Positions 4,044 to 22,677 of a stretch of 64,000 bases of DNA are shown here, in pieces. Position numbers and translations under genes: made by a program. The notes under the pieces were generated by a model. The model saw nothing but the letters and a program-made list of their open reading frames with translations, ran no database searches and was not told the DNA's origin. This DNA is from Phycisphaerales bacterium. Lineage in GTDB: Bacteria; Planctomycetota; Phycisphaerae; Phycisphaerales; UBA1924. The number at the start of each line of letters is the position of its first letter. The stretch's first letter is position 1. Location of the stretch: assembly GCA_022843045.1 (NCBI GenBank), contig JALHOJ010000002.1:1-64000 (forward strand), in the 5' to 3' direction.

Positions 4044-4176
4044 AGCAGTTGGTCCCTGTGAACGCGCGCACCACAGGCGGTGCCGCGCGAAGCGCGGTTA
4101 CGGGCCAAGAGGTGGCGGGGGGATGGATGTCGGGTTGGGGACGCGGCCCTACGCCGGACCGCGCATCAGAACGCGA

Positions 4177-4590
4177 TCAGTCGATGCGGTCCGCGCGAGC
4201 GGCCAGTTGCCGGTAGTTGCGGACGGTATTGGCAAAGTCCCCCGGTCCACGCTGCTTGACGCCAACGTCGATGAGCAGTCGGCGACCGTGGAGCTCGTGG
4301 GTGGTTGAGAACGATGCGAGACCAACGGCGGCACATAACGCCGCAAGCTCTTGTTCGGCGAGCTGGCGGACGGTGAACTTGCTGCTGCCAACGTGCACTC
4401 GCACGAACAGCACACGCCCGGCGTGATCTCCACGATCGATCTGCAGAGCAAACTGCAGGAAGTGGCCATCACCCGAGCGTGCGAGCCGGCGCATCGAATC
4501 AACGATGCGGGCCTGATAGGTGCCGATCGGGACAAGGCCCGCGTTGGCGGCGGCGAGATGGGCGGTTGCGTTGAATCGATAGCTGGCCAT
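4177..4590 (-). CDS. DUF669-like phage/element protein
   Basis: 137 aa. It begins MASYRFNATAHLAA and continues with a compact beta-rich body (GTYQARIVDS, HFLQFALQI, GRVLFVRVHV). This matches DUF669 proteins, which are found beside helicase and recombinase genes in phages and are thought to bind single-stranded DNA. ATG at 4590 is chosen because AAGGAGCG sits just before it; the open frame runs further upstream but the extra 41 residues have no family character. About 130 bp separate it from the downstream helicase gene, so co-transcription is plausible. The DUF669 assignment is from overall resemblance. Confidence 0.7.
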   Translation of the reverse strand: MASYRFNATAHLAAANAGLVPIGTYQARIVDSMRRLARSGDGHFLQFALQIDRGDHAGRVLFVRVHVGSSKFTVRQLAEQELAALCAAVGLASFSTTHELHGRRLLIDVGVKQRGPGDFANTVRNYRQLAARADRID

Positions 4591-4819
4591 GGAACGCTCC
4601 TTCTGAATGAGCATGCTGGCACGTATCAGGTTGATTAGTCGCATGCTCCACGCGGCCCGTCCGATGCACATCGAGTGCGCCTCGACGAGCAACCAGCGGG
4701 TACGCGTGGTCACATCCTGACATTGATGTCGTCGTGGTCGTTGCCGGGCATATCCGGATGAACAACACAGCGGCTATTGAGCGAGCAAAGACCAATCACG
4801 ATGCGTGGATGTGCTTTTC

Positions 4820-7863: not shown

Positions 7864-8568
7864 TTAGAACAGCAGGTTGGGGCGTTCACGCATCAGCAGG
7901 CCCAGCTTTTCGAGGCGGATGCGCATCGCCTCGGCGGACACTTCAAACCGCTCTGCGAGCGGCTTTGCGAACTGTTCGAGCGTCGCGCTGGCTGGGTCGC
8001 GTCCGGCGCTGGCCCGCGCTGGGGGAAGATCCTGAAGGATGACCGCATCGAGGTTGCCACGCCACTCTTCCCAGGCAGCGACCACGAGGCGCTTGGGCAT
8101 CAGGAGGTAACTGGCAAACATGTCGGCCTGCCACTCCTCAGGCGGCTTGTCGCTCGAGCGGCATACGAACGCAGGTTGTCCGCGGCCGTCGAAGAGCGCG
8201 GCTTGGGCTGGATCTTTGCGGTAGTACGTGCGGTGCAGCCGCCAATGGCCGATCTCGTGCGCCACCGTGAACCGATAGCGGCCAAGCCGCGCCGGGTTGT
8301 CGGAAGGATCAAGCTGGGAGTCGATCCGTACCAACTTGTCGTCGAACCAGATCGCGCCCAGCACACTGTCGGTGCCAAAGAGCGCCGCAAGGTCCTCGAT
8401 CGCGAACGTCAACCCTAAGTGAAGCTCCAGGATGTCCTCGACGGGGATCGGCGCGGCTACCGGCTGGCCGACTCGGTGGCCATACTCGGCAATGAGGGCA
8501 TCGGCATCTCGCTCGATGCGAACTTCCGGGACGAACGGCACACTTGAGATGGCCCCGCGAACGCTCAA
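7864..8568 (-). CDS. ImmA/IrrE-type metalloprotease
   Basis: 234 aa. The zinc protease motif HEIGHW sits in VAHEIGHWRLH near residue 97, with a downstream ADMFASYLLMP segment, both typical of the ImmA/IrrE (DUF955) family. These proteases cleave a partner repressor when the cell senses DNA damage or a mobile-element signal. The start is a TTG (8568) forming a TTGA overlap with the stop of the upstream XRE gene; GGAGG lies 10 nt before it. The gene pair arrangement, repressor first and protease second, matches the ImmR/ImmA switch of integrative elements and some toxin-antitoxin-like modules. Confidence 0.88.
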   Translation of the reverse strand: MSVRGAISSVPFVPEVRIERDADALIAEYGHRVGQPVAAPIPVEDILELHLGLTFAIEDLAALFGTDSVLGAIWFDDKLVRIDSQLDPSDNPARLGRYRFTVAHEIGHWRLHRTYYRKDPAQAALFDGRGQPAFVCRSSDKPPEEWQADMFASYLLMPKRLVVAAWEEWRGNLDAVILQDLPPARASAGRDPASATLEQFAKPLAERFEVSAEAMRIRLEKLGLLMRERPNLLF

Positions 8569-8933
8569 GACCGATCAACCTCCATGCGCAGCTTTGCGGC
8601 GTGATCTTGCAGCTTCTTGAGTTGCTCAGGCGTGAGGCCCTTCAGGGCACGCAGCAGGGCGGGCATCGCTTCGGGTTGGCTCTGGATGATCTTCGGGAGA
8701 TCTTCGGGCACACGCCCGGCAAGGGCGAACAGTTCATCAGCGCTCGTGCCCAGGAGATCTGCCATCTTCTGAATGCGATCCGCGGTCGGGGGCGAGTCTA
8801 CCTTTCCCTGTTCAACGTGGGAGAGGTAGGTCGGGCTGACCCCCACGAGCTCCGCGAACCGACGCAGGCTGTAGCCTTTGGCGGTGCGACGCTCGCGAAG
8901 GAAGGCACCGAACTTTGGCTTAGGGGCGGTCAT
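8565..8933 (-). CDS. XRE-family helix-turn-helix regulator
   Basis: 122 aa. An HTH_3 domain occupies roughly residues 5-65 (FGAFLRERRTAKGYSLRRFA ... VSPTYLSHVEQGK), followed by a helical tail (LKGLTPEQLKKLQDHAAKL). An ATG 45 bp further upstream at 8978 is in frame, but it lies between a strong -35 and -10, so it would not be in the mRNA; ATG 8933 fits a leader of about 24 nt. No good ribosome site is visible at either. It probably represses its own promoter and perhaps the divergent defence operon, and is probably the substrate of the ImmA protease encoded next. Confidence 0.85.
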   Translation of the reverse strand: MTAPKPKFGAFLRERRTAKGYSLRRFAELVGVSPTYLSHVEQGKVDSPPTADRIQKMADLLGTSADELFALAGRVPEDLPKIIQSQPEAMPALLRALKGLTPEQLKKLQDHAAKLRMEVDRS

Positions 8934-8963
8934 GAGGGATGGAAGTCTGCCTGTCCCCTGTTT

Positions 8964-8992
8964 ACTATACGTGGACATAACCGGCGGGTCAA
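8964..8992 (-). promoter_or_regulatory. Sigma-70 promoter of the XRE-ImmA operon
   Basis: On the minus strand, TTGACC (8992-8987) is followed after exactly 17 bp by TATAGT (8969-8964). An imperfect palindrome with GTT...AAC ends overlaps the spacer and -10 and is a candidate operator for the XRE protein. Read directly from sequence; activity is inferred. Confidence 0.7.
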
Positions 8993-9212: not shown

Positions 9213-12200
9213 GTGAGAGTCGTCCCCAACACCGGAAATGATCGCGTTTTTGACGCTGTGCAGCGATGTGCACCTGGCGTTGCACAACTCGATTTCGCTT
9301 CAGCGCAGCTATCTGTGTTCGCCCTTAGCGAGCTCGTAGCTTTGATGAGCGAAATGCGGGCAATGAGAGCCATCATTCCAGCACAGTCGCAGCCCGCCGA
9401 GCTTCTGGGAGACGATGCCGACCGCAGCCGGCGGAACCGCTTCGAGACTCCGTTTCTGGCGAGGACGCTCGCGGACACGATCGAGAAGGTATCTGCTGTT
9501 AGGCAAGCTCCGAAAGGTGTTCCACAGGGCGCGTTGGTCGCGAGGCTTGGCAGCAATGAGCCCGCGCAGGCGATTCTCGGCGCGTTCTCTATCAGCAGTC
9601 CCGGCCTCGGTTTGTCGCCGGGAAACCCGCTCAGTCTGATCCAGGCGTCCGAAAGCCCTGCTGAAGCTGCGATGATCGCGCAATGGTTCGACCTGCAGTG
9701 GGCCTCGTTGGGGGCCGACGGTACCGCCAAGAGCGACCTCATTTCGCTGCTTCGTCGGATCTGCCAGCATCGGGATCCGCTGGGCGTCTATGCGGTAATG
9801 TTGCACCATCTGCTAGGCAGCCGGGGGGACGCGCTCGACGAAGACCGCGTCGTCAACGCCGCAACTGGTATTCGGAAGACCATCATCTGGAAGAAGCTCT
9901 ACAAGTTCCAGCGAGATGGTGTCGTCGGAGCGATCGACAAGCTGAACCGGTTCGGCGGCTGCATCATCGCCGACAGCGTTGGTCTTGGAAAGACATTTGA
10001 AGCTCTCGCAGTGATCAAGTACCACGAGCTGCGAAACGATCGTGTCCTGGTTTTGTGCCCAAAGCGCCTTCGCGACAACTGGACGCTCTATGCCACGAAC
10101 GATCGCCGAAACATCCTCGCAGCAGATCGCTTCAACTACGACGTGCTGAACCACACCGACCTTTCGCGCGATGGCGGCACGTCGGGCGACATCGATCTCG
10201 GGAACGTCAACTGGGGCAACTACGACCTCGTCGTCATCGACGAGTCGCACAACTTCCGCAACAAGAAGAGTCCTCGCCAGGGCGGAATGACGCGATATGA
10301 CCGCCTGATGAAGCAAATCATCAAGGAAGGTGTCCGAACCCGCGTTCTGATGCTCTCGGCAACGCCCGTGAACAACCGTCTCGCCGACTTGCGCAATCAG
10401 ATCGCCTTCGCGACTGAAGGCGACGATACGGCGCTCGCCGACCACGGCATCTCGAGCATCGACTCCACCACCCGCATGGCCCAGAAGCAGTTCAACCGCT
10501 GGCTCGAACTCGATGCAGTGGACCGCACGCCTGGCCGTTTGGTGGAAATGCTGGGCTTCGACTACTTCAAGCTGCTCGATTTGCTCACCATCGCTCGCTC
10601 GCGCAAGCACATCGAGAAGTACTACGGCACGAGTGAAACAGGTCGCTTTCCCGACCGGCGTAAGCCAATCAACGTCAAGGCCGACATTGACACCGCGGGC
10701 GAGTTTCGCTCCATCCGCGAACTCAACCAGGAGATACGTCGGCTAAACCTCTCGGCGTATGCGCCGCTGCGATACGTTCTTGCTCACAAGCAGGAAGCCT
10801 ACGACCGAAAGTACAGCACAGAGGTGTCGGGCGGCAAGGGATACTGGCGGCAGGTCGACCGCGAAGAGAGCTTGATACAACTGCTCCGCGTCAACGTGCT
10901 CAAGCGCCTGGAGAGTTCGGTGAACTCGTTTGCCCTGACCGTTCATCGACAGTTGCACGATGTCGAGGCGATGCTCGCTCGCATCGATGCCAAAGGTGAA
11001 GAGGTCGAAGAGGTCAGCATCGAGGACGTGGACATCGACGACTCCGCATTCGAGAGCTTGCTTGTTGGCCGGAAGGTCAAGGTTCTGCTGTCTGACGTTG
11101 ACTTGGTGCGATGGCGGCAGGATCTCATCGAGGACCGCAATCGCCTGTCCACCCTCGCGTCGGTAGCGAGGCTTGTATCGGCTGAGCGTGACGCCAAGCT
11201 TGTCAAGCTCAAGGAGTTCATCCTCGCAAAGTGCGGGGAGCCCTTCAATGCTGGCAACCGTAAGGTCCTGCTTTTCACGGCGTTCGCGGACACGGCGGAT
11301 TACCTCTACCAGCATCTCGCTCCCTGGGCGAAGCAGACACTGGGCGTCGACTCCGCCGTTGTCACCGGAACGGGTCGCAACCAGACCACTCTGCCATCAA
11401 TTCGCAAGGACTTCGTATCGATCCTCACAGCGTTCTCCCCGCGTTCAAAGGAGCGCCCCGAGGATCTCACCAACGAAGGCACGATCGACCTGCTCATCGG
11501 TACCGACTGCATTTCTGAAGGGCAAAACCTCCAGGATTGCGATTGTGTCATCAACTACGACATCCACTGGAACCCTGTCCGCATCATCCAGCGGTTTGGC
11601 CGAATTGATCGCCTGGGATCGTCCAACGCCCAAATCCAGTTGGTCAATTTCTGGCCCAACATGCAGCTGGAGGAGTACATCAACCTCGAGCAGCGGGTGA
11701 GCGGTCGAATGGTCTTGCTCGACGTCTCCGCGACAGGCGAGGAGAATCTGATCGAGGCAGATTCTGGTAACATGATGCGAGACTTGGAGTACCGCCGCGC
11801 CCAGCTATTGAAGCTCCAGGACGCCGTCATCGATCTTGAGGACCTCTCCACCGGGGTCAGCATTGCGGACCTAACTCTAACGGACTTCCGCATCGATCTC
11901 GCTGAGTACAGCCGAGAGCACCCCGACCGCCTCGAGACCGAGCCTCCTGGTACATTCGCGGTCACGACCTCGTCGGACGCCGATATTGAGCCTGGCATTA
12001 TCTTCTGTCTTCGCGCGGAAGGCGACGCCGCGAAAGCGACCCCCGAGCCCGGTTATCCACTCGCTCCGCACTACTTGGTTCACGTTGGCGACAATGGGAC
12101 CGTTCTCGTCCCCTACACGCGGGCTAAGCAGATTCTCGACCGCCTCAAGCGGCTGTGTATCGGCAAGTCGATCCCAGACGCCGAGGCAAGCAACCGCTTT

Positions 12201-12443
12201 GACCGCCAGACGCGAATGGGCAAAGACATGGACCACGCGCGGACACAATTCGCTAGCGCCGCAACGTCCATCATCGGCAAGAACGACGAACGAGCCATCG
12301 CCAGTCTGTTCACGCCCGGCGGTACCCACGTCCGCCGGGGCGAAGTCGCGGGTATCGATGATTTTGAAGTCTTGGCATTCCTGGTCGTGCTACCCGCGTC
12401 GCGCGATTCCGCTGCATCCCACGCTGTGGAGGCGAATGCGTGA
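9213..12443 (+). CDS. SNF2-like superfamily 2 helicase of the defence operon
   Basis: 1,076 aa from GTG 9213. An N-terminal stretch (residues about 8-45, RVFDAVQRCAPGVAQLDFAS) resembles the start of PLD-like domains found on such helicases, but no HKD motif is visible. Helicase motifs follow: Walker A SVGLGKT, DESH box in VVIDESHNFRNKK, LSATPVNNR, then C-terminal GTDCISEGQNLQ and IIQRFGRIDRLGS. A helical insertion lies between the two RecA lobes. GTG 9213 is preferred over GTG 9147 because CGGAGG lies at good spacing before it. The stop overlaps the next gene's start (GTGA). Probably an ATP-driven translocase that supports restriction. Confidence 0.88.
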   Translation: MRVVPNTGNDRVFDAVQRCAPGVAQLDFASAQLSVFALSELVALMSEMRAMRAIIPAQSQPAELLGDDADRSRRNRFETPFLARTLADTIEKVSAVRQAPKGVPQGALVARLGSNEPAQAILGAFSISSPGLGLSPGNPLSLIQASESPAEAAMIAQWFDLQWASLGADGTAKSDLISLLRRICQHRDPLGVYAVMLHHLLGSRGDALDEDRVVNAATGIRKTIIWKKLYKFQRDGVVGAIDKLNRFGGCIIADSVGLGKTFEALAVIKYHELRNDRVLVLCPKRLRDNWTLYATNDRRNILAADRFNYDVLNHTDLSRDGGTSGDIDLGNVNWGNYDLVVIDESHNFRNKKSPRQGGMTRYDRLMKQIIKEGVRTRVLMLSATPVNNRLADLRNQIAFATEGDDTALADHGISSIDSTTRMAQKQFNRWLELDAVDRTPGRLVEMLGFDYFKLLDLLTIARSRKHIEKYYGTSETGRFPDRRKPINVKADIDTAGEFRSIRELNQEIRRLNLSAYAPLRYVLAHKQEAYDRKYSTEVSGGKGYWRQVDREESLIQLLRVNVLKRLESSVNSFALTVHRQLHDVEAMLARIDAKGEEVEEVSIEDVDIDDSAFESLLVGRKVKVLLSDVDLVRWRQDLIEDRNRLSTLASVARLVSAERDAKLVKLKEFILAKCGEPFNAGNRKVLLFTAFADTADYLYQHLAPWAKQTLGVDSAVVTGTGRNQTTLPSIRKDFVSILTAFSPRSKERPEDLTNEGTIDLLIGTDCISEGQNLQDCDCVINYDIHWNPVRIIQRFGRIDRLGSSNAQIQLVNFWPNMQLEEYINLEQRVSGRMVLLDVSATGEENLIEADSGNMMRDLEYRRAQLLKLQDAVIDLEDLSTGVSIADLTLTDFRIDLAEYSREHPDRLETEPPGTFAVTTSSDADIEPGIIFCLRAEGDAAKATPEPGYPLAPHYLVHVGDNGTVLVPYTRAKQILDRLKRLCIGKSIPDAEASNRFDRQTRMGKDMDHARTQFASAATSIIGKNDERAIASLFTPGGTHVRRGEVAGIDDFEVLAFLVVLPASRDSAASHAVEANA

Positions 12444-13207
12444 CGGTAACCGGGACCCAACAGGTGATCGACGCTTTGGGGCTGCCAGCCGCGGCGCTCG
12501 TCGGACAGCGCGTCCCCAAGACCCTGCTGGTCGAGCACGGTGCGCCCACCGTCGCCGACAAGCGCCTTGTGGAGGCCGGCATCGAGGAGCTTCGGTGGGT
12601 TGCAAGCCTCAAACCCAACACGATCGGCGTCGCCGCCTTTGAGGATTCGGTCCGCCAGTGCGTGGAGCTCATCGTCCTCGCGCTGTCGCTCCGCCCTGAT
12701 GCCAAGCCCGCTCGCCTGCTCGAGCTTGTCCATCGAGCGGTCCCCTATCACGTCCTCCTGATCGTCAACCAATCCGTGAGCTCACCGGTCCTCAGCGGCG
12801 CTGACAAGCGATGGTCGCAGGGCGAATCCGGGAGAGTGGTGCTCGATGGAAACATCGTGACTACCCACCTGTCGGCCGCCACGCAGCCAGCCGTCGACGC
12901 GCTGCTCGGCACGCTCGCCGTGCCGCGCCGGCCCCACCCAAACCTCTACACGCTGTACCGCTCATGGCTCGACGCGCTGCTGGCGGCCGAAGCCGCCCTT
13001 ACGACCGGCGTGTTCACGGAATCCGGATCCACCGAACATTCCGCCGCGCGAGAAGCGGCACTCGCCGAGTGCGCTGATCTCGACAAACAAATCAAATCGC
13101 TCCGCACTGCCGCAGCCAAAGAGCGACAGATGGCCCGCCAGGTCGATCTCAACCTCCAACTCCGGCAACTGCAAGCACGATACGACGAGGCTCGTAAGCG
13201 GCTTTGA
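12440..13207 (+). CDS. DUF4391 protein
   Basis: 255 aa. It matches the DUF4391 pattern: an ELRWVASLKPNTIGV strand near residue 50, an ELIVLAL helix, a YHVLLIVNQ strand, and a long C-terminal coiled coil (AALAECADLDKQIKSLRTAA ... LRQLQARYDEARKRL). DUF4391 genes are known neighbours of SNF2-like helicases and type III-like Mod and Res genes. The biochemical role is not established; it may be an adaptor between helicase and methyltransferase. GTG at 12440 overlaps the helicase stop by 4 bp. The next gene starts 13 bp after its stop. Confidence 0.82.
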   Translation: MTVTGTQQVIDALGLPAAALVGQRVPKTLLVEHGAPTVADKRLVEAGIEELRWVASLKPNTIGVAAFEDSVRQCVELIVLALSLRPDAKPARLLELVHRAVPYHVLLIVNQSVSSPVLSGADKRWSQGESGRVVLDGNIVTTHLSAATQPAVDALLGTLAVPRRPHPNLYTLYRSWLDALLAAEAALTTGVFTESGSTEHSAAREAALAECADLDKQIKSLRTAAAKERQMARQVDLNLQLRQLQARYDEARKRL

Positions 13208-13220
13208 ACCAGGACTCTCC

Positions 13221-14900
13221 ATGAAGAACCAGAAACAGACAATCCGAAAGATCGTGGGGTTCCTGAACAACCCGGATGAAGAGGGCGGCTTCTGGCTTCC
13301 GAACATCCAACGCCCATTCGTGTGGAGCGAAGAGCAGATCTGCCGCCTCTTTGATTCGATCCTGCGTGAGTACCCGATCAGCACGCTGCTCATCTGGAAG
13401 ACGACCAGCGGAATTCGGCGGCGAAAGTTCATTGACAACTGGAAGGAATCCCTCCGCCTGAGCGATTACTACGTCCCGGAAGATTCCAGGAAAAAGTGCC
13501 TTGTGCTGGATGGGCAGCAGCGGCTGCAGAGCCTGTTCATCGGTCTCTGCGGCAGCTACGAGGGGCGGGAGCTCTACTTCGATATCCTCAGCGGCCAGCT
13601 CGCCGCGCCCGACGACGTCAAGTATCGCTTCAAGTTCATGCCCGCGGCCCCGGCTTTCCCGTGGGTCCGGTTCAAGGACTTGGTGTTCACGACTCAGCGA
13701 AAGAGCGACATCGCCCGCGACCTTCGCGATCGTCATGAAGTGAGTCATGCGGACTTGCAGAAACTGGAAGATCACCTCGACCTGGTCGATCGCACCCTCA
13801 AGATGGATGAGGCGATCACATACCAGGAGCTCGACAGCATCGACAACCCACAGCTGTACTCCGAGGACGATGTCGTAGAGGTGTTCATCCGCGCCAACTC
13901 TGGCGGCACGAAGCTCGGTAAGTCCGACTTGCTCTTCTCCCTGCTCAGCGCCACGTGGGAGGTCGCCGATGACCGCATGGAGGAGCTGCTCGGTTCGCTC
14001 AACACCCACGGCTTTGCCTTCGACCGCGACTTCGTCCTGAAGACGTGCTTGGTGTTGCTGGGGCAGGGCGCTCGTTACGAGGTCGAGAAGTTCCGCAAGC
14101 CCGGCGTGCGCGAGGACATCGAGCGCCGCTGGTACGAGATTGCGGGCGCGGTCCAGGATGTGCTCGACTTCGTGCGGAGCAAGACGTTCATCCAGTGTGA
14201 CAAGGCCCTGCCCAGCTACCAGGTGCTCATACCGCTGGTCTACGTCCGGTTCCACTACCACGACGAGTGGAAGCGTGCGGCCGGGCTCGATGAGTATTTG
14301 CTCCGCTGCTCCCTGGCCGCTTCATTCACGGGCCAGCCCGACACCGTCATCGACGGCCTCTGCCGGCGCTTCAAAGAGATCGGCAAGTTTGACCTCTCCG
14401 AGGCGTTCAAGGTCATCCGCACCGCCAATCGCCCGCTGGAGCTCACCGAGGAACGTCTCTGGCAGCTCGGCTATGGCTCGGATGCGATCCACCTGTTGTT
14501 CAACCTCTGGTACCGGGACTTCAACCACACGCCCGCGTACGAGAACAACCTGCCCCAGATCGACCACATCTTCCCGCAATCCGTCCTCGAAGCGATCCGC
14601 GATCCCAATCCCGACACCGGCAAGCGCAGCGTGATGCGCTACCGAAAGCCCGTCCGCGATCAGCTCGCCAACTGCATGTTGCTTACCCGAGAGGAGAACG
14701 GGGCCGGCGGCAAGGGCGACACCATGCCCGATGTCTGGTTCGCGGGCAAGAACGAGGCGTATCTTGACAGGCACATGATCCCCCGCGACAAGAATCTGTG
14801 GAAGCTGGATCGCTTCGATGACTTCATCGCCGCCCGCAAAGACCTGATCCGTGAGAAGTTCGCCCAGCTGCTGACCGCGCCCGGAGGCACCACCGCATGA
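13221..14900 (+). CDS. DUF262 + HNH single-chain GmrSD-like nuclease
   Basis: 559 aa. The N-terminal DUF262 (GmrS-like) domain has the usual signatures: IQRPFVWSEEQICRLFDSIL near residue 30 and LVLDGQQRLQSLF near residue 97. The C-terminus (about 450-500) carries an HNH/DUF1524-like site: QIDHIFPQS followed by LANCMLLTREEN and a lysine/glycine loop. GmrSD enzymes are NTP-dependent type IV nucleases that cut modified phage DNA. Here both parts are in one chain. The gene lies between the DUF4391 gene and mod, and its stop overlaps the mod start by ATGA, so it is produced with a modification enzyme rather than alone. Confidence 0.86.
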   Translation: MKNQKQTIRKIVGFLNNPDEEGGFWLPNIQRPFVWSEEQICRLFDSILREYPISTLLIWKTTSGIRRRKFIDNWKESLRLSDYYVPEDSRKKCLVLDGQQRLQSLFIGLCGSYEGRELYFDILSGQLAAPDDVKYRFKFMPAAPAFPWVRFKDLVFTTQRKSDIARDLRDRHEVSHADLQKLEDHLDLVDRTLKMDEAITYQELDSIDNPQLYSEDDVVEVFIRANSGGTKLGKSDLLFSLLSATWEVADDRMEELLGSLNTHGFAFDRDFVLKTCLVLLGQGARYEVEKFRKPGVREDIERRWYEIAGAVQDVLDFVRSKTFIQCDKALPSYQVLIPLVYVRFHYHDEWKRAAGLDEYLLRCSLAASFTGQPDTVIDGLCRRFKEIGKFDLSEAFKVIRTANRPLELTEERLWQLGYGSDAIHLLFNLWYRDFNHTPAYENNLPQIDHIFPQSVLEAIRDPNPDTGKRSVMRYRKPVRDQLANCMLLTREENGAGGKGDTMPDVWFAGKNEAYLDRHMIPRDKNLWKLDRFDDFIAARKDLIREKFAQLLTAPGGTTA

Positions 14901-16933
14901 GCACACCGACCATCCGCAAAATCACCGCCTCCGACCCGCTCGCCGCCTCCGCCGACGTTGTCGCGGAGAACATTGCCAAGCTCAAGGCCCTCTTCCCCGA
15001 GTTGGTGACCGAGGGGGAGAAGGGCGTTTCGGTGAATGTCGACGTGCTGAAACAGCTCGTCGGCGACGGGACGCTCACCGACGCAGAGGAGAAGTTCGGC
15101 CTCAACTGGCACGGCAAGCGGCAGGCCCGCCAGCTCGCGCTCACGCCCAGTACGGGGACGCTTCGCCCCTGCCCGGAAGAGAGTGTGGACTGGGATACCA
15201 CGCAGAACATCTTCATCGAGGGAGACAACCTGGAGGTGCTCAAACTGCTCCAAAAGTCGTACGCGGGTCAGGTGAAGCTCATCTACATCGATCCACCGTA
15301 CAACACGGGCAAGGACTTCGTGTACCCCGACGACTTTTCAGATGGCATCGGGAACTACCTCGCCCGGACAGGCCAGGTGGACAGCGAGGGACTGAAGAAG
15401 TCCAGCAACACGGAATCGTCGGGCCGGTTCCATACGTCATGGCTCAGCATGATCTTGCCACGAGTCCGGCTGGCTAGGTCATTGCTGAAGCCGGACGGTG
15501 CGATCTTTGTTTCCTGCGATGAAGCTGAACATCCGCGTCTCCGTTCGCTCATGGACGATGTATTCGGAGAAGAGAACTTCGTTGCCGACTTTGTCTGGGC
15601 AGCAGGTCGCAAGAACGATTCTCGACTGGTGTCGATATCACACGAGTACATCGTCTGCTATGCGCGGGACAGCGGCTATCTGAAGGCGGCAGAAATCGAG
15701 TGGCGTCAGCGAAAGAAGGGCCTCGAAGACATTTACTCACAGTACGACCGACTCAAGCGCCAGCACGGCAATGATTATGCTGCGATGACAGCTGCTCTGA
15801 AGGCGTGGTTCAAGGATTTGCCCGACAGCCACCCCGCGAGAGCACACAAGCACTACTCCCATGTCGATCACCGCGGCATCTACTTTCCGGACAACATCTC
15901 GTGGCCCGGCGGTGGAGGTCCTAAGTACGAGGTCTTGCATCCCCGCACTCGGCGTCCTGTAGCCGTGCCGTCCAGAGGATGGATGACGAGCGACCCGAAG
16001 AAGATGCAGGCGTGGATCGCTGACGAACGAGTGCACTTCGGCGAGGACGAATCGGCCGTGCCGTGTATCAAGTCATACCTGAAAGACCGAGAATACCAGG
16101 CCCCGTATAGCGTGTTCTACCAAGACGGCCGAGCGGCAACGAAACGGCTGCGGGAGTTGATGGGCACGGATTGCTTCGATTTCCCGAAGGACGAGCTCGT
16201 TCTGCAAGAGCTTGTGGGCATGATGACGGGCGAAGGCGACATCGTCATGGACTTCTTCGCAGGGTCCGGCACCACAGGTCACTCTGTAATGCTGCAGAAT
16301 CGTGAGGATGGTAAGCAACGTCGGTTCATTCTCGTTCAACTTCCCGAACCGCTCGACCCCGAGCATGCCGAGCAGGCTGAGGCGGCGGCATTCTGTGACA
16401 AACTCAGAAAACCCCGGAACATCGCCACGCTCACCAAAGAACGACTTAGACGGGCGGGCCGGGCTGTTGTCGATGGCCGTCTTGGTGCGGTAGACGTGGG
16501 GTATCGAACCTTCCGTCTCGATTACTCGTGCCTCCGGTTGTGGAACTCCGCGAAGTCGGTGACAACCGATCGGCTGGAGGCCTCTGTTGAACACATTGAG
16601 CCGGGACGGACATCAAGCGACCTTCTCAACGAGCTGTTGCTCAAGCGAGGCCTCGATCTCTGCGTACCTATCGAGACCAAGACAATTGCTGGCAAAGTGG
16701 TCCACTCGGTCGGTGCGGGATCGCTCATCGCGTGCCTCGATGCAGCGATTGCGAGAGAGAATGGAGAGGCCCTTGCACTGGGAATTGCCAAATGGCACAC
16801 GGAGCTGAACCCCGCCGGCGAGACCGCCGTCGTCTTCCGCGATGACGCGTTCGCTGACGATGTGGTGAAGACCAACGTCGTGGCGATTCTGGTGCAGCGT
16901 GGTTTTGACGAAGGCCGTATTCGCAGCCTGTAG
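14897..16933 (+). CDS. Type III-like DNA methyltransferase (Mod, beta class)
   Basis: 678 aa. Catalytic motif IV DPPYN is at residues 132-136 in KLIYIDPPYNTGKDF, and the SAM-binding FAGSGTTGHS comes later, near residue 455. That order marks a beta-class N6-adenine or N4-cytosine methyltransferase of the type III Mod family. The segment between them would be the target-recognition region. The C-terminal 180 residues are less conserved and probably contact Res. ATGA overlap with the DUF262 gene shows translational coupling. It presumably methylates one strand of an asymmetric site, protecting host DNA against the Res subunit encoded downstream. Symbol left blank as the specificity is unknown. 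Confidence 0.9.
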   Translation: MSTPTIRKITASDPLAASADVVAENIAKLKALFPELVTEGEKGVSVNVDVLKQLVGDGTLTDAEEKFGLNWHGKRQARQLALTPSTGTLRPCPEESVDWDTTQNIFIEGDNLEVLKLLQKSYAGQVKLIYIDPPYNTGKDFVYPDDFSDGIGNYLARTGQVDSEGLKKSSNTESSGRFHTSWLSMILPRVRLARSLLKPDGAIFVSCDEAEHPRLRSLMDDVFGEENFVADFVWAAGRKNDSRLVSISHEYIVCYARDSGYLKAAEIEWRQRKKGLEDIYSQYDRLKRQHGNDYAAMTAALKAWFKDLPDSHPARAHKHYSHVDHRGIYFPDNISWPGGGGPKYEVLHPRTRRPVAVPSRGWMTSDPKKMQAWIADERVHFGEDESAVPCIKSYLKDREYQAPYSVFYQDGRAATKRLRELMGTDCFDFPKDELVLQELVGMMTGEGDIVMDFFAGSGTTGHSVMLQNREDGKQRRFILVQLPEPLDPEHAEQAEAAAFCDKLRKPRNIATLTKERLRRAGRAVVDGRLGAVDVGYRTFRLDYSCLRLWNSAKSVTTDRLEASVEHIEPGRTSSDLLNELLLKRGLDLCVPIETKTIAGKVVHSVGAGSLIACLDAAIARENGEALALGIAKWHTELNPAGETAVVFRDDAFADDVVKTNVVAILVQRGFDEGRIRSL

Positions 16934-16986
16934 TGCCCTTACAAACCAAATCATCGAAGTACCGCAGTCGCCGTCCGGAGTTCATT

Positions 16987-17622
16987 ATGAGCCGCATCAC
17001 CATAAATCTCGAATACGTGCTGTGCTTGAATCAGCAGGGCCACTTTAACTACGCCATTCGAAGTCACCGTCGAGAGGGTGGCAGTCCCCGTTGGGTGATC
17101 GACACGAGCGGCGCTGCGGTCGTGTGGCGGCTCGAGAAGCTCACTGATGGGGTTCCGGAGGTTCCTGGTGGCGGCAGAGACCGTGTGGATCGAGTTGATT
17201 TCTACATCCTGCAACGCGACCTAAAGCCGCTGATCTCTACGTTCCCCCCCGCAGCAGCGCCTGCAGATAAGACCTTTAAGTTGCCCGTTACTGATTCGCG
17301 TGGTACTGAACGCCACGCCGGAAAGACCGTGCGCCCACTCGTCCAGATAGCCCGCTACTCGGGGATCACATCGTGCCATTGGGAGAACCATCGAACACCT
17401 CCCTTCTTTGCGGCTGTGACGACGAGTGCCGAGTTGCACGTTGATATCGAGCTCACACCTGAGAAGGAGTATGGGGCCGAACTGCCTGAGCTTCACTTCG
17501 GCATCTCCGGTCAGTATGTAGTGACCGGTATCGCTGGCGGCGGGGCCAGCTTCGTGGAGATCCGGATGCCTCATGAGCTCTACGCTCAGATTGTCGCGGA
17601 CCTTCGATGGAACCTTCGGTAG
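16987..17622 (+). CDS. Unrecognised 211-aa protein between mod and res
   Basis: 211 aa from ATG 16987, which has CCGGAG at good spacing; an in-frame GTG at 16933 overlaps the mod stop but has no ribosome site. No family recognised. It is beta-rich: ITINLEYVLCLNQQGHFNYA at the start, a VDFYILQRDL segment near residue 75, and ELHVDIELT, HFGISGQYVVTGI and SFVEIRMP strands near the end. There is no signal peptide, membrane segment or obvious catalytic motif. Location between methyltransferase and nuclease genes on the same strand implies a function in the same system, for instance specificity, inhibition or sensing; this is inference only. Confidence 0.7.
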   Translation: MSRITINLEYVLCLNQQGHFNYAIRSHRREGGSPRWVIDTSGAAVVWRLEKLTDGVPEVPGGGRDRVDRVDFYILQRDLKPLISTFPPAAAPADKTFKLPVTDSRGTERHAGKTVRPLVQIARYSGITSCHWENHRTPPFFAAVTTSAELHVDIELTPEKEYGAELPELHFGISGQYVVTGIAGGGASFVEIRMPHELYAQIVADLRWNLR

Positions 17623-17668
17623 TCAGAGGCATAGTGCACACCACATCGCCATCGGAGACTGAATCGCC

Positions 17669-20600
17669 GTGAAGCTCCACTTTGAACCAGACCTCGACTA
17701 TCAGCTGCGGGCCATCGAGTCCGTGTGCGACCTGTTCCGCGGCCAGGAGCTCTGCCGCACGGAGTTCACGGTCGTGCGTGATGTGGCCAACCCGCAGATG
17801 CGGCTGGGCTTCGCCGAGAGCGACCTGGGCGTCGGCAACCGCCTCACCCTGCTCGATGACGAGCTGCTGGAGAACTTGAAGGACGTCCAGCTTCGCAACG
17901 GGCTCGCGCCGGCGAGCACGCTCGCGTCTGGCGACTTCACGGTCGAAATGGAGACGGGTACGGGCAAGACGTACGTCTACCTCCGGTCCATCTTCGAGCT
18001 CAACAAGCGGTTCGGCTTCACCAAGTTCGTCATCATCGTGCCATCCGTCGCCATCAAGGAGGGCGTGTACCACTCGATCGACTCGATGGCCGAGCATTTC
18101 CGCGGGCTGTACGCGGGCGTGCCGTTCGACTACTTCCTGTACGACTCGTCGCGTATGGGCCAGGTGCGGAACTTCGCCACCAGCCCGCACATCCAGATCA
18201 TGGTGACGACCGTCGGCGCGATCAACAAGAAGGACGTGAACAACCTCTACAAGGACAGCGAGAAAACCGGCGGCGAGAAGCCGATCGACCTGATTAAGGC
18301 GACGCGTCCCATCCTTATAGTGGACGAGCCCCAGAGCGTCGACGGCGGCCTGAGCGGAGCGGGCAAGCTGGCCCTCGATGCCATGAACCCGCTGTGCACG
18401 CTGCGGTACTCGGCGACGCACGTGAACAAACACCACATGGTGTACCGGCTCGATGCCGTGGACGCGTACGAGCGGAAGCTGGTCAAGCAGATCGAAGTGG
18501 CCGCCGCCACGGTGGAGAGCGCCCACAACCGGCCGTTCGTGCGGCTCGTCGGCGTGCAGAATCGGCGGAACGTCATCTCCGCGAAGGTGGAATTGGACGT
18601 GGAAACGCTCCACGGCGTGGAGCGCAAGGAGGTTTTGGTTCAGGACGGCGATGACCTCGAGCAGACCACGCGCCGCGCGATGTATGCCAACTGCCGTGTC
18701 GGCGAGATTCGCGTAGCCGCGGGTCGCGAGCACATGGAGCTGCGCTACCCGGGCGGCGAGAAGTACCTGAAGCCCGGTGAGTCGTGGGGCGACGTCGACG
18801 GCGCGAGCATCCAGCGCGAGATGATCAAGCGGACCATCAAGGAGCACTTGGACAAGGAGAAGCGTCTCCGACCGCTCGGGATCAAGGTCCTCAGCCTGTT
18901 CTTCATCGACGAGGTGGCGAAGTACCGGCAGTACGACAAGGACGGCAACCCCGTGAAGGGCGAATATGCCAAGATCTTCGAGGAGGAGTACAAGCGCTGG
19001 GCCCGACATCCGGACTACGACACGCTCTTCAAAGAGGTCGACCTGTCGAAGGCTGCTGACGAGGTGCACGACGGCTATTTCTCCATCGACAAGCGCACCG
19101 GCCGAGCCGTGGACACCGAGGAGGGAAATCAGACTGGTCGCGACGCGGCTGAGAAGGCGTACAACCTGATCATGAAGGAGAAGGAGAAGCTGCTGAGCTT
19201 CTCGACGCCGCTGAAGTTCATCTTCTCGCACTCGGCGCTGAAGGAGGGCTGGGACAACCCCAACGTGTTCCAGATCTGCTCGCTCCGCGACATCCGCACC
19301 GAGCGAGAGCGCCGCCAGTCGATCGGTCGCGGGCTCCGGCTCTGCGTGAACCAGGACGGACAGCGCGTCCGCGGGTTCGAGGTCAACACGCTGACCGTGG
19401 TGGCCAACGAGAGCTACGAGGCGTTCGCCGACAACCTTCAGAAGGAAATCGAGGAGGACACCGGCATCCGGTTCGGCATCGTCGAGCAGCACCAGTTCTC
19501 GCAGGTCGCGACGGCGGGCACCGACGGCAAGGTCACAGTGCTCGGCGTCGAGCAGTCGAAGGCCGTCTGGGAGCACCTCAAGGCGAAGGGGTACATTGAC
19601 GCTCGCGGCAAGGTGCAGGATGCGCTGCGTCAGGCGATCAAGAACAAGACGGTCGAACTGCCCGTTGCGATTGTCGGCGAGGCGGGGCAGAAGGACCAGG
19701 TCGTGGAGATCCTGCGCAAGCTTGCGGGCAAGCTGGAGATCAAGAACGCCGATGACCGGAAGCCGATCACGGTCCGCCGCGCCGTGCTGGATAGTGAGCA
19801 GTTCAAGCAGCTTTGGGCCCGTATCCGGGACAAGACCACGTATCGCGTCAACTTCGACAACGATAAGCTAATCGCCGATGCCAGCAAGGCGATCGAGGAG
19901 GCACCGCCGATCGCGCGGACTCGGTTGCAGTGGCGGAAGGCCGACGTTGCGATCGGCCGCGGCGGCGTCCAAGCCACGGAGTCCGGTGATTCGTCCGTCG
20001 TCGTCCTCAACGAAGCGGATATCGAGCTTCCTGACATCCTCACGGATCTGCAGGATCGCACACGCCTCACCCGCAGGAGCATCGCCAAGATTCTGATTGA
20101 CAGCGGACGACTAGACGAGTTCTCACGCAATCCCCAGGAGTTCATCGAACTGGCCGCTGACGCGATCAATCGATGCAAACGATTGGCGCTGGTGGACGGC
20201 ATCAAGTACCAGCGCCTTGGCAATGAGTTCTACTACGCCCAAGAGCTCTACGAGAACAAGGAGCTGACCGGGTATCTGCGGAACATGCTGGCGGCCTCAA
20301 AGGCCCCGTACGAACACGTCGTGTACGACTCCGACGTCGAGAAGTCGTTCGCTCAAGAGCTTGAACGGAACACCGCGATCAAGGTCTACGCGAAGCTGCC
20401 CGGGTGGTTCACAGTGCCCACCCCGCTTGGACCGTACAACCCCGACTGGGCGGTTCTCGTACAGCAGGACGGGGAAGAGCGTTTGTACTTCGTCGTAGAG
20501 ACCAAACCATCGGCCTTGCTGTTCGACGATGCTCGGAGAGTCTCAGAGAACGCAAAGATCCAGTGCGGCAAGGCTCACTTCAAAGCAATTGCAACCGACG

Positions 20601-20683
20601 CCAATCCTGCACAGTTTATTGTCGCCGAATCGATCGATGATGTGTTTCGGCATTCAACACATACTTCGCCACCTAGAAATTGA
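17669..20683 (+). CDS. Type III-like restriction subunit (Res): helicase plus PD-(D/E)XK nuclease
   Basis: 1,004 aa, the usual size for Res. It opens with a Q-like DYQLRAIESV, then Walker A METGTGKT near residue 95, DEPQ box (ILIVDEPQSVDG) near residue 215, and motif VI QSIGRGLRLCVN near 550. The C-terminus has a PD-ExK nuclease site: YNPDWAVL near residue 923 and VVETK near 945. Start is GTG 17669 with CGGAG upstream. Together with Mod it would translocate along or scan DNA and cut unmethylated sites. The gene ends 15 bp from the convergent HTH gene, so the operon closes here. Confidence 0.9.
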   Translation: MKLHFEPDLDYQLRAIESVCDLFRGQELCRTEFTVVRDVANPQMRLGFAESDLGVGNRLTLLDDELLENLKDVQLRNGLAPASTLASGDFTVEMETGTGKTYVYLRSIFELNKRFGFTKFVIIVPSVAIKEGVYHSIDSMAEHFRGLYAGVPFDYFLYDSSRMGQVRNFATSPHIQIMVTTVGAINKKDVNNLYKDSEKTGGEKPIDLIKATRPILIVDEPQSVDGGLSGAGKLALDAMNPLCTLRYSATHVNKHHMVYRLDAVDAYERKLVKQIEVAAATVESAHNRPFVRLVGVQNRRNVISAKVELDVETLHGVERKEVLVQDGDDLEQTTRRAMYANCRVGEIRVAAGREHMELRYPGGEKYLKPGESWGDVDGASIQREMIKRTIKEHLDKEKRLRPLGIKVLSLFFIDEVAKYRQYDKDGNPVKGEYAKIFEEEYKRWARHPDYDTLFKEVDLSKAADEVHDGYFSIDKRTGRAVDTEEGNQTGRDAAEKAYNLIMKEKEKLLSFSTPLKFIFSHSALKEGWDNPNVFQICSLRDIRTERERRQSIGRGLRLCVNQDGQRVRGFEVNTLTVVANESYEAFADNLQKEIEEDTGIRFGIVEQHQFSQVATAGTDGKVTVLGVEQSKAVWEHLKAKGYIDARGKVQDALRQAIKNKTVELPVAIVGEAGQKDQVVEILRKLAGKLEIKNADDRKPITVRRAVLDSEQFKQLWARIRDKTTYRVNFDNDKLIADASKAIEEAPPIARTRLQWRKADVAIGRGGVQATESGDSSVVVLNEADIELPDILTDLQDRTRLTRRSIAKILIDSGRLDEFSRNPQEFIELAADAINRCKRLALVDGIKYQRLGNEFYYAQELYENKELTGYLRNMLAASKAPYEHVVYDSDVEKSFAQELERNTAIKVYAKLPGWFTVPTPLGPYNPDWAVLVQQDGEERLYFVVETKPSALLFDDARRVSENAKIQCGKAHFKAIATDANPAQFIVAESIDDVFRHSTHTSPPRN

Positions 20684-20698
20684 TGGGACAATTGCTGC

Positions 20699-21082
20699 TC
20701 AAAGTGCTAGCCAGGCGGCTCGCTGCTGACTCCAAGAGGCGGTGGCGGCAATTGGCCGAAGATCACGCTCGGTGATCGCGTCACGGCCCTTCGAGGACGC
20801 GGGAAGATACAAGATCTGTTCCTGAATATCCGGCGCAAGATGCAGCAGGTTCATAATCTGCGTCATACGCGGCTGTGTGACCCGGCACAGGCGGGCAAGC
20901 TCGGAAAGGTCCGCAACGACACCCTTCTGGATGAGCCGGTCGTACTTGATCGCCAGGGCCATCAGGCGGGCTACGCGGGGCACACGGCCCGGCAGTTCGG
21001 CTTTGGGGGCCTCTGGTCCAAGCACAACGCGCTTGCGGCGGGCTTTCCGAGTGATATGGATGGTCCGGACAACGGTTGTCAA
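20699..21082 (-). CDS. Small HTH protein coupled to the recombinase
   Basis: 127 aa if it starts at TTG 21082. That TTG forms a TTGA overlap with the recombinase stop and is preceded by TGGAGGAA, a strong ribosome site; an ATG at 21109 would add 9 residues. The middle (ADLSELARLCRVTQPRMTQI) is a clear helix-turn-helix, and basic residues dominate the N-terminus (TRKARRKRV). Similar small genes follow serine recombinase genes in related elements. It may be a recombination directionality factor or a regulator, but this cannot be decided from sequence. It resembles the HTH part of KorB/ParB proteins only loosely. Confidence 0.72.
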   Translation of the reverse strand: MTTVVRTIHITRKARRKRVVLGPEAPKAELPGRVPRVARLMALAIKYDRLIQKGVVADLSELARLCRVTQPRMTQIMNLLHLAPDIQEQILYLPASSKGRDAITERDLRPIAATASWSQQRAAWLAL

Positions 21083-22677
21083 GCTGCTTCCTCCAGTCGA
21101 CGGGTACACAGGGCGGCGATGCCGGTTGCTCGGAACGTCACTGCGACTGTTGATTTCTCCGAGTCGAACTCGACATTTGACAACAGCAACTTCAGCACGC
21201 GAGCCTGCTCTCGAGGTGACAATTGCGACCAGACGCCGTCGAATTCGCTGAGGGCTTTTCTGGCCTCTTCCCGTGAGATGGCCTTGGACCCGAGCACGCC
21301 CAGCCGGGTTTCGATTTCGGCAACGCGGTTGCGGGTTCCGCTGATCTGCTCGTGGATACTGGCCAGTCGGGCGGTGGTGGCCGCACTCCCGCTCTTGTCC
21401 GCGATGAGTTCCCTCAGCTCCTTCTCCATACGGCCGAGCGAGGCGTGGATCGATGCCCGCTCTGCCTTGAGCGCCGCGAGTTCCTCGTCCACGTTGACCA
21501 CTGCCTCAGCGAGAATGCGGTCGAGCAGCGCCCGGTCTTTGCCGAGCGAGCGGATCTCGTCGACGACCAACTTCTCGATCTCCAGCCCGGGCAGCGATGA
21601 CGCTCCGCAGGTGTGTGCTCCGTTCTTGATCGCCTCAAGGCACCTGTAGTAGCGGTACTGTTTGTTCCGCTTGCCGTAGAACGTGTGGATCATTGCGCAG
21701 TCGCACTTCTTGCACCGCATGAGCCCGCGTAGCAAGGCCCCGTACTTGTTGCGCATCTCAATACCGCCGGTTCGACCGTTCTCCGCGAGCTGCTGGCGGA
21801 CTCGCTCAAACAAGGCAACATCGACGATCGCCTCGTGCTCGCCGTCATAGGTGTTGCCCCGATGGACGATCTTGCCGGTCAGGAGCGGGTTGGTTAGAAG
21901 AACGTGCAGGCTGCCGGTGTTGAAAGGCTGGCCGCCGACGCTGTCGCCCTTCCGGGTTACTCGGCGCTTGTTCTTCCATTCGCGGTGCCTCAGCTCGGTC
22001 ACTGTTCGCTGAAGCGACCCTTTATCCAGATACATCTTGAAGATCTCGCGGACGCGGTGGGCTTCGCGGGGGTTGACCACCAAGCGGGGACTACCGCCGG
22101 AACGGTCCACGTCATAGCCCAGGATCGGCACGCCGCCCGCCCACTTGCCCCGACGCTTCTGGGCGGCGATCTTGTCGCGGATGCGCTCACCGATGATCTC
22201 GCGTTCGAACTGGGCGAACGACAACAGGATGTTGAGCGTCAGGCGGCCCATCGAGCTCGTGGTGTTGAACTGCTGCGTCACCGAGACGAACGACACGCCT
22301 TTGCGATCGAACGTCTCCATGATGCGAGCGAAGTCCATCAGAGAACGGCTCAACCTATCCACTTTGTAGACTACAACGCAGTCGATCTTCCCGGCCTCGA
22401 TGTCTTTCAGGAGCTGCTCCAACGCCGGTCGCTCCATGCTGCCGCCGGAGAAGCCGCCGTCGTCGTATCGATCCGGGAGGCACACCCACCCTTCGTTGCG
22501 CTGGCTGGCGATGTATGACTCCGCAGCCTCCCGCTGGGCGTCGAGCGAGTTGAACTCGAGTTCGAGCCCCTCCTCGCTGCTTTTGCGGGTATAGATCGCG
22601 CACCGGATCGGACCCGGAGATCGGTTGCCGCGGTCCCGTGACAGAGACGTGTTGGAAGATTGGCCGCGCTTGGTCAT
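21079..22677 (-). CDS. Large serine recombinase (integrase)
   Basis: 532 aa. The catalytic domain occupies roughly residues 23-170: AIYTRKSSEEG with nucleophile Ser33, then DDGGFSGGSMERPAL, YKVDRLSRS and ERIRDKIAAQ. A recombinase domain follows (GGVPILGYDVD...), then a zinc ribbon (CKKCDCAM ... YRCLEAIKNGAHTC) and a C-terminal coiled coil rich in Glu/Arg. These enzymes integrate and excise elements at short att sites with a 2-bp crossover core. The upstream DUF2924 gene and the downstream HTH gene both overlap it by start/stop codons, forming one operon. It is the best evidence that the left third of the window is a mobile element. Confidence 0.93.
   Translation of the reverse strand: MTKRGQSSNTSLSRDRGNRSPGPIRCAIYTRKSSEEGLELEFNSLDAQREAAESYIASQRNEGWVCLPDRYDDGGFSGGSMERPALEQLLKDIEAGKIDCVVVYKVDRLSRSLMDFARIMETFDRKGVSFVSVTQQFNTTSSMGRLTLNILLSFAQFEREIIGERIRDKIAAQKRRGKWAGGVPILGYDVDRSGGSPRLVVNPREAHRVREIFKMYLDKGSLQRTVTELRHREWKNKRRVTRKGDSVGGQPFNTGSLHVLLTNPLLTGKIVHRGNTYDGEHEAIVDVALFERVRQQLAENGRTGGIEMRNKYGALLRGLMRCKKCDCAMIHTFYGKRNKQYRYYRCLEAIKNGAHTCGASSLPGLEIEKLVVDEIRSLGKDRALLDRILAEAVVNVDEELAALKAERASIHASLGRMEKELRELIADKSGSAATTARLASIHEQISGTRNRVAEIETRLGVLGSKAISREEARKALSEFDGVWSQLSPREQARVLKLLLSNVEFDSEKSTVAVTFRATGIAALCTRRLEEAA

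What the first reader, a model, noticed from the sequence alone, without database searches (positions are those of the whole stretch)
9213..20683. Composite defence operon: helicase, DUF4391, GmrSD-like nuclease, Mod, unknown, Res
Six genes on one strand, most joined by 4-bp overlaps or short gaps, combine a type III-like Mod/Res pair with a second (SNF2-like) helicase, a DUF4391 protein, a DUF262-HNH nuclease and an unrecognised protein. Helicase-DUF4391-Mod-Res sets are familiar, but I do not know this six-gene form as a named system. It would cover both unmodified DNA (Mod/Res) and possibly modified phage DNA (GmrSD-like). It sits in a mobile element with a recombinase.
Basis: partly seen in the sequence, partly recalled or inferred. 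Interest (0 to 1): 0.8.

Follow-up and report, generated by a model that had tools for sequence, protein, structure and literature searches.

The report
Prophage-borne extended type III restriction operon
A phage-like element in a Phycisphaerales-like bacterium carries a widespread four-gene defence core (SNF2 helicase, DUF4391, Mod, Res) with two extra genes slotted in: a nuclease of the kind that cuts modified phage DNA, and a small protein of unknown function that seems to go with one version of the DNA-marking enzyme.

Summary
The six genes are real, intact and co-directional. They are best read as a layered system, not a new six-part machine. The core is Hel-DUF4391-Mod-Res, an unnamed but widespread extended type III restriction-modification set found on plasmids and chromosomes of several bacterial phyla and an archaeon. 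Hel carries an N-terminal PLD-like domain that has lost its HKD motif in all 15 type III-linked copies aligned. Two cargo genes are inserted: a BrxU/HEC-05-type GmrSD nuclease, and a 211-aa orphan with no Pfam, PADLOC, NCBIfam, PHROGs or PDB match. The six-gene order recurs in one other genome (Phycisphaerales UBA2421, 29-70% identity by gene, with DUF3800 added). A viral contig with Hel, GmrSD and Res at 92-94% identity lacks the orphan. DUF262 genes of several unrelated lineages sit in or beside this core elsewhere, so cargo is replaceable. Mod is a mosaic: its centre groups with UBA2421's Mod, the other orphan-bearing operon, while Hel, DUF4391 and Res group with the viral contig. The operon lies between repressor and serine integrase genes of a phage-like element. 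Likely role: exclusion of unmethylated and base-modified phages. New variant of a known kind.

The parts
9213..12443 (+). Hel: SNF2-family SF2 helicase (1076 aa) with a degenerate N-terminal PLD-like domain that lacks the HxKx4D motif
   Evidence: Pfam SNF2-rel_dom and Helicase_C, PADLOC C3a139 'HKD+Snf2' E 7e-111; Walker A, DESH, SAT and QRFGRIDR motifs intact; HKD absent in 15/15 type III-linked homologues but HAK retained in the L038 homologue
12440..13207 (+). DUF4391 protein (255 aa), core component that co-varies most tightly with Hel; C-terminal helical hairpin
   Evidence: Pfam DUF4391 E 1e-59; distance correlation with Hel r=0.965 over 16 loci; AF2 model pLDDT 85
13221..14900 (+). GmrSD-like (DUF262 + HNH) nuclease, 559 aa, HEC-05/BrxU type; cargo gene
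   Evidence: GmrSD_N E 2e-28 and GmrSD_C E 1e-8; PADLOC HEC-05 E 7e-97; PDB 7p9k (BrxU) E 5e-30; DGQQR, DHIFP and Asn motif intact; relatives at 49-54% stand alone in Nostoc and Nitrosospira
14897..16933 (+). Mod: type III DNA methyltransferase (678 aa)
   Evidence: PADLOC MTase_III E 2e-203; DPPYNTG and FAGSGTTG motifs; mosaic ancestry
16987..17622 (+). Orphan protein (211 aa) between Mod and Res
   Evidence: no match in Pfam, PADLOC, NCBIfam, PHROGs or PDB; 70% identical in L002; differences concentrated at third codon positions, 134 of 225; distant homologues in L038 and L046 adjacent to methyltransferase + SNF2 helicase genes
17669..20683 (+). Res: type III restriction helicase-nuclease (1004 aa)
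   Evidence: PADLOC REase_III score 1282; Pfam ResIII and RE_endonuc; Walker A, DEPQ and PD...ETK motifs
21079..22677 (-). large serine integrase of the carrying element
   Evidence: Resolvase + Recombinase + Zn_ribbon_recom; phrog_95 integrase E 1e-122; 88% identical in viral contig L056
22674..23189 (-). DUF2924 protein paired with the integrase
   Evidence: Pfam DUF2924; 89% identical in L056, 42% in L057 next to the integrase
7864..8978 (-). lysogeny-type control pair: HTH repressor (8565-8978) and IrrE-type metalloprotease (7864-8568), divergent from the operon
   Evidence: Pfam and PHROGs
31..4713 (-). phage-type replication genes: primase/polymerase-helicase, SF2 helicase, ssDNA-binding-like protein
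   Evidence: PHROGs phrog_3022, phrog_16, phrog_6015

Best explanation
A phage-like integrative element carries a layered restriction operon. Layer 1 is an extended type III system: Mod methylates host and element DNA at an unknown site and, with Res, cleaves unmethylated invading DNA. Hel and DUF4391 act as a paired accessory motor and adaptor for this layer; Hel's PLD domain has lost its catalytic motif, so cutting is left to Res. Layer 2 is an autonomous GmrSD/BrxU-type nuclease that cuts DNA with modified bases which would escape layer 1. The 211-aa orphan is an optional partner or regulator of the Mod step that goes with a particular Mod allele. Shown here: gene content, intact motifs, recurrence of the core, loss of HKD, absence of the orphan from a close relative, Mod mosaicism, phage-like setting. 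Inferred: every biochemical activity, the Hel-DUF4391 role and the orphan's role.
For: The core of four recurs without the extras: Paraburkholderia, Enterococcus, Methylotuvimicrobium, Aeromonas and Vibrio plasmids, Acetobacter with an IS-split Res, phylum loci L032, L033, L035, and an archaeal plasmid with another insert. Hel-DUF4391 distances correlate at r=0.965, the tightest of the six gene pairs. HKD lost in 15/15. GmrSD motifs intact and nearest solved relative BrxU. Unrelated DUF262 genes (23-31% identity) sit at three positions of the core: L034, L050, L054, L057. Orphan absent from L056, whose Hel, GmrSD and Res are 92-94% identical. The Mod tree pairs window with L002 (0.967), while Hel, DUF4391 and Res pair window with L056 (1.0); Mod residues 300-450 share 19 sites with L002 against 5 with L056, the reverse of the ends (Fisher P about 2e-7). 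Phage genes and integrase.
Against: No experiment and no methylome. Orphan-Mod linkage rests on only two close operons plus two distant homologues of 24-28% identity whose neighbouring methyltransferases are of another class. In L046 the orphan homologue is convergent with the methyltransferase, not co-directional. Hel-DUF4391 could be an independent defence module that merely co-locates with Mod-Res. No structural phage genes were seen on this contig, which starts inside the element, and no terminase was found in the related viral records.
Confidence: 0.55

Rival explanations
1. Ordinary defence-island packing: a standard type III RM pair, an independent Hel-DUF4391 defence module and a stand-alone GmrSD happen to share a transcript, with no functional coupling.
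For: GmrSD relatives stand alone elsewhere; many type III Mod relatives on plasmids have no DUF4391 hit (115 Mod against 24 DUF4391 records); cargo varies freely.
Against: Hel-DUF4391-Mod-Res order is kept across several bacterial phyla and an archaeon, and all four genes' distances are correlated (r 0.79-0.97, none of 2000 permutations as high), although shared vertical descent contributes to this.
Confidence: 0.25
2. The orphan is a phage-derived counter-defence or control protein that holds back Mod, Res or GmrSD until lysogeny is established, and not a restriction partner.
For: The operon sits in a phage-like element next to repressor genes; the orphan is missing from the close relative L056.
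Against: Its distant homologues sit in other helicase-methyltransferase defence loci; no relative found in viral contigs by two pattern scans or in PHROGs.
Confidence: 0.15
3. One integrated six-protein machine in which GmrSD and the orphan are essential subunits.
For: Tight packing (short overlaps and gaps) and the same six-gene order in L002.
Against: Viral contig L056 lacks the orphan; most core loci lack both extras; unrelated DUF262 genes occupy other positions.
Confidence: 0.05

Closest known systems
Type III restriction-modification (EcoP15I-type Mod/Res)
   Same: Mod with type III motifs and order; Res with SF2 helicase plus PD-(D/E)XK nuclease; same strand, Mod before Res
   Different: Two additional conserved genes, Hel and DUF4391, precede Mod, and cargo genes are inserted on both sides of Mod
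BREX + BrxU on pEFER (Picton et al. 2021, PMC8565348)
   Same: A GmrSD-family nuclease co-encoded with a methylation-based system; the two layers were shown to protect against modified and non-modified phages
   Different: The partner is a type III-like core, not BREX; here the GmrSD gene lies inside the operon, between DUF4391 and Mod
TgvAB embedded in the Vibrio cholerae type I RM operon (PMC11411939); RloF in Campylobacter type I RM
   Same: GmrSD-like genes embedded inside an RM operon
   Different: Type I host operon and a two-protein system; here a type III host operon and a single GmrSD protein
Hma-embedded candidate HEC-05 (PADLOC), equated with BrxU in PMC11411939
   Same: The GmrSD protein's best PADLOC family (E 7e-97); embedded in a helicase-methylase operon
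   Different: The host operon has Mod-Res, Hel and DUF4391 instead of Hma genes
DISARM DrmD / HKD-SNF2 helicases
   Same: Hel is a distant SNF2 relative (NCBIfam DrmD 146 bits)
   Different: Far below the DrmD cut-off of 610 bits; no other DISARM gene identified among the six

Membership tests
Type III restriction-modification system | Mod with type III methyltransferase motifs and family match | tested here: met
   PADLOC MTase_III E 2e-203; DPPYNTG and FAGSGTTG motifs
Type III restriction-modification system | Res with SF2 helicase and PD-(D/E)XK nuclease domain | tested here: met
   PADLOC REase_III 1282 bits; ResIII + RE_endonuc; motifs intact
Type III restriction-modification system | Strand-specific m6A methylation at an asymmetric site and cleavage needing two sites and ATP | not testable with these tools
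   needs methylome and biochemistry
GmrSD / BrxU type IV restriction enzymes | DUF262 with DGQQR and DUF1524-type HNH (DHxxP, Asn) in one chain | tested here: met
GmrSD / BrxU type IV restriction enzymes | Cleavage of DNA with modified cytosine, NTP-stimulated | not testable with these tools
   needs biochemistry or phage assays
DISARM | DrmD at the curated cut-off | tested here: not met
   146 bits against a cut-off of 610
Active HKD (PLD) nuclease in Hel | HxKx4D motif in the N-terminal domain | tested here: not met
   absent in the window protein and 14 other type III-linked Hel proteins
BREX | PglZ, BrxC and PglX genes in the locus | tested here: not met
   none among the operon's family matches
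A named six-gene system | Published system with the same gene set | tested here: inconclusive
   No named match in PADLOC, Pfam or NCBIfam; only one paper in the held library mentions DUF4391; subscription papers and DefenseFinder models were not searched

The most novel reading that the evidence does not exclude
Hel-DUF4391-Mod-Res is a distinct, unnamed subtype of type III restriction in which a dead-PLD SNF2 motor and a DUF4391 adaptor are obligatory, and the 211-aa orphan is the first member of a new family of Mod-allele-linked partner proteins exchanged together with the target-recognition part of Mod.
Probability: 0.25. Interest if true: 0.65.

Novelty: new variant of a known kind. Interest (0 to 1): 0.45.

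Why it matters
Embedding of modification-dependent nucleases in restriction operons was known for type I RM, BREX and Hma; here it recurs in an extended type III operon with several unrelated DUF262 lineages in three positions, which suggests repeated selection for pairing the two kinds of restriction. The four-gene core with a dead-PLD helicase and DUF4391 is common but unnamed in the sources searched, so it is a ready target for experiments. The orphan gives a testable lead: a protein that may be tied to a methyltransferase allele.

Tried and rejected
Orphan function by homology: no match in Pfam (E up to 5), PADLOC, NCBIfam, PHROGs or PDB sequences, apart from a sub-threshold Pfam hit of its L046 homologue to LPG_synthase_C that was not relied on; none in plasmids with three queries; two viral-contig scans gave none. 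AF2 model of the orphan was poor (mean pLDDT 47 with two sequences), so it was not used for a fold search; a SecB-like reading of its strand-rich C-terminus was considered and left unclaimed. DUF4391 gave a good model (pLDDT 85) but no confident Foldseek match in PDB or viral models, and VIA-align matched only the C-terminal helical hairpin, so no fold is claimed; weak tRNA-splicing-endonuclease and restriction-enzyme hits were noted but not relied on. DISARM and BREX membership rejected. The idea that DUF4391 divergence from L056 shows recombination was dropped, because DUF4391 is the fastest-diverging core protein generally. More orphan homologues were sought in three orders and in class and phylum samples with little gain. 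An empty integration site could not be shown: the contig starts inside the element, and relatives' matches around the tRNA-Met were fragmentary.
Full report
Observation. The window contains six intact co-directional genes at the stated place: an SNF2 helicase (Hel), DUF4391, a GmrSD-like DUF262-HNH protein, a type III Mod, a small protein with no family, and a type III Res. Family searches with Pfam, PADLOC and NCBIfam support each label. The small protein's start is best placed at ATG 16987 (211 aa), as in its 70%-identical homologue, with a GGAG just upstream. Its differences from the homologue fall mostly at third codon positions (134 of 225), so it is a real gene under selection.

Setting. 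The host is a draft genome of 147 contigs, 4.08 Mb. No tool named it; the nearest named relative found is a Phycisphaerales MAG, and a genome with the same contig coordinates (G474, taken to be that MAG) is reported as the same class but a different family. The operon lies between a divergent HTH repressor/IrrE pair and a large serine integrase with DUF2924. The minus-strand genes to its left are phage-type replication genes. To the right come a tRNA-Met and then superoxide dismutase and succinate dehydrogenase genes. A viral-database contig (L056, IMG/VR) has the same layout with repressor, protease and integrase 77-88% identical. No terminase was found in the related viral records and this contig begins inside the element, so 'phage-like element' is as far as I go.

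The core. Hel-DUF4391-Mod-Res, in this order and without the extras, occurs on plasmids of Paraburkholderia, Enterococcus, Methylotuvimicrobium, Aeromonas and Vibrio, on Acetobacter and Acinetobacter plasmids with an IS insertion, and in three loci of the phylum sample (L032, L033, L035). With inserts it occurs on an archaeal plasmid and elsewhere. In a sample of 392 genomes of the phylum, 10 have a DUF4391 match over the curated cut-off. Across 16 loci, distances of the four proteins are correlated, most tightly Hel with DUF4391 (r = 0.965) and least tightly in pairs involving Mod (0.79-0.81); none of 2000 permutations was as high. Shared descent contributes, so this supports a unit but does not prove interaction. 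Hel's N-terminal domain aligns with a PLD domain. The L038 homologue keeps the VHAK...GSSNLT signature, but all 15 type III-linked copies have lost the catalytic HxK. I infer that Hel is a motor or sensor and that Res cuts.

The cargo. The GmrSD-like protein matches HEC-05 and BrxU and has the DGQQR and DHIFP motifs. Its closest plasmid relatives, 49-54% identical, are not embedded in such an operon. Other DUF262 proteins, 23-31% identical to this one or to each other, sit between DUF4391 and Mod (L034, contig cut there), between Mod and Res (L050, L054) or just after Res (L057). L050 lacks a recognised DUF4391. The same slots hold DUF1016 nucleases (L036, L037), a RhuM-family protein (L055) or an unknown (L049) in other loci. 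So the slots accept different cargo, and DUF262 nucleases have entered more than once.

The orphan. It was found between Mod and Res in only two genomes, the window's and UBA2421 (L002), which carries all six genes in the same order plus DUF3800. L002 identities to the window are Hel 53, DUF4391 about 30, GmrSD 68, Mod 69, orphan 70, Res 65%. L056 lacks the orphan: only 19 bp separate Mod from Res. In trees of Hel, DUF4391 and Res the window pairs with L056 (support 1.0) and L002 is distant. In the Mod tree the window pairs with L002 (0.967) inside a clade with L056 (1.0). Window-L056 Mod has dS 1.83 against 0.52-0.87 for the other four shared genes. Within Mod the two ends share sites with L056, while residues 300-450 share sites with L002 (19 against 5; Fisher P about 2e-7 against the N-terminal 150 residues). 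By my knowledge of EcoP15I the target-recognition domain lies in the central part of Mod. So the orphan is present in the two operons whose Mod centre is alike. This is suggestive but n is 2. Two distant homologues (24-28%) lie next to a type IIG-like methyltransferase and SNF2 helicase in L038 (same strand) and L046 (convergent). In all four loci the orphan's neighbour is a methyltransferase gene.

Mechanism. Best reading: layered restriction carried by a phage-like element. Mod marks self, Res cuts unmarked DNA, Hel-DUF4391 assist that layer, and GmrSD attacks DNA whose modified bases defeat the first layer. The complementary logic has been shown experimentally for BREX+BrxU (PMC8565348), and embedded TgvAB in a type I RM operon acts on hypermodified phages (PMC11411939). 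Here it is inferred. Rival readings are unlinked packing (0.25), an orphan that is a control or counter-defence protein (0.15), and an indivisible six-part machine (0.05). The rivals about the orphan and about the core are not mutually exclusive.

Novelty. No named system with this gene set was found in PADLOC, Pfam, NCBIfam or the held papers; DUF4391 occurs in a single paper of that library. DefenseFinder models and subscription papers were not searched. GmrSD embedding in restriction operons is known (PMC4619093, PMC11411939), so this is a new variant of a known kind. The least explained element is the orphan.

Noticed in passing
L038:2857-14937: SNF2 helicase with an apparently active PLD (VHAK), type IIG-like methyltransferase, orphan homologue, DUF4747-like gene and a TIR-SLOG protein in one stretch: another possible multi-layer defence locus.
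   Followed up: partly
L056 (IMGVR_UViG_3300045902_000773): Viral-database contig carrying nearly the whole element (Hel, GmrSD, Res 92-94% identical) but without the orphan; next to it the same tRNA-Met flank as in the window (78% over 354 bp) and one extra gene.
   Followed up: yes
G000:C88:4165-4460: Second copy (80% identical) of the tRNA-Met flank in the same genome; could be another tRNA locus or the far edge of an element.
   Followed up: no
G000:C4:94474-95976: Terminase-like frame (phrog_2 match) with two TGA and one TAG in frame: decaying prophage or recoding.
   Followed up: no
L036:11729-13386 and L037:14111-15322: DUF1016/YhcG-type nuclease genes inserted between Mod and Res, in L036 with a PDDEXK_3 protein.
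   Followed up: partly
window:12440-13207: DUF4391 has a confident AF2 model (pLDDT 85) but no confident whole-domain structural match; only its C-terminal helical hairpin was matched.
   Followed up: partly
L060:1-8831: Viral contig with two diverged Mod genes in tandem before Res (each about 35% identical to the window Mod), with short frames between them.
   Followed up: no
L050:2118-14214: Planctomycetes K2D plasmid pK2D_1: SNF2 helicase, SIR2-like, HerA-like, Mod, DUF262-HNH, Res in a row; DUF4391 seems replaced by a SIR2-HerA pair.
   Followed up: partly
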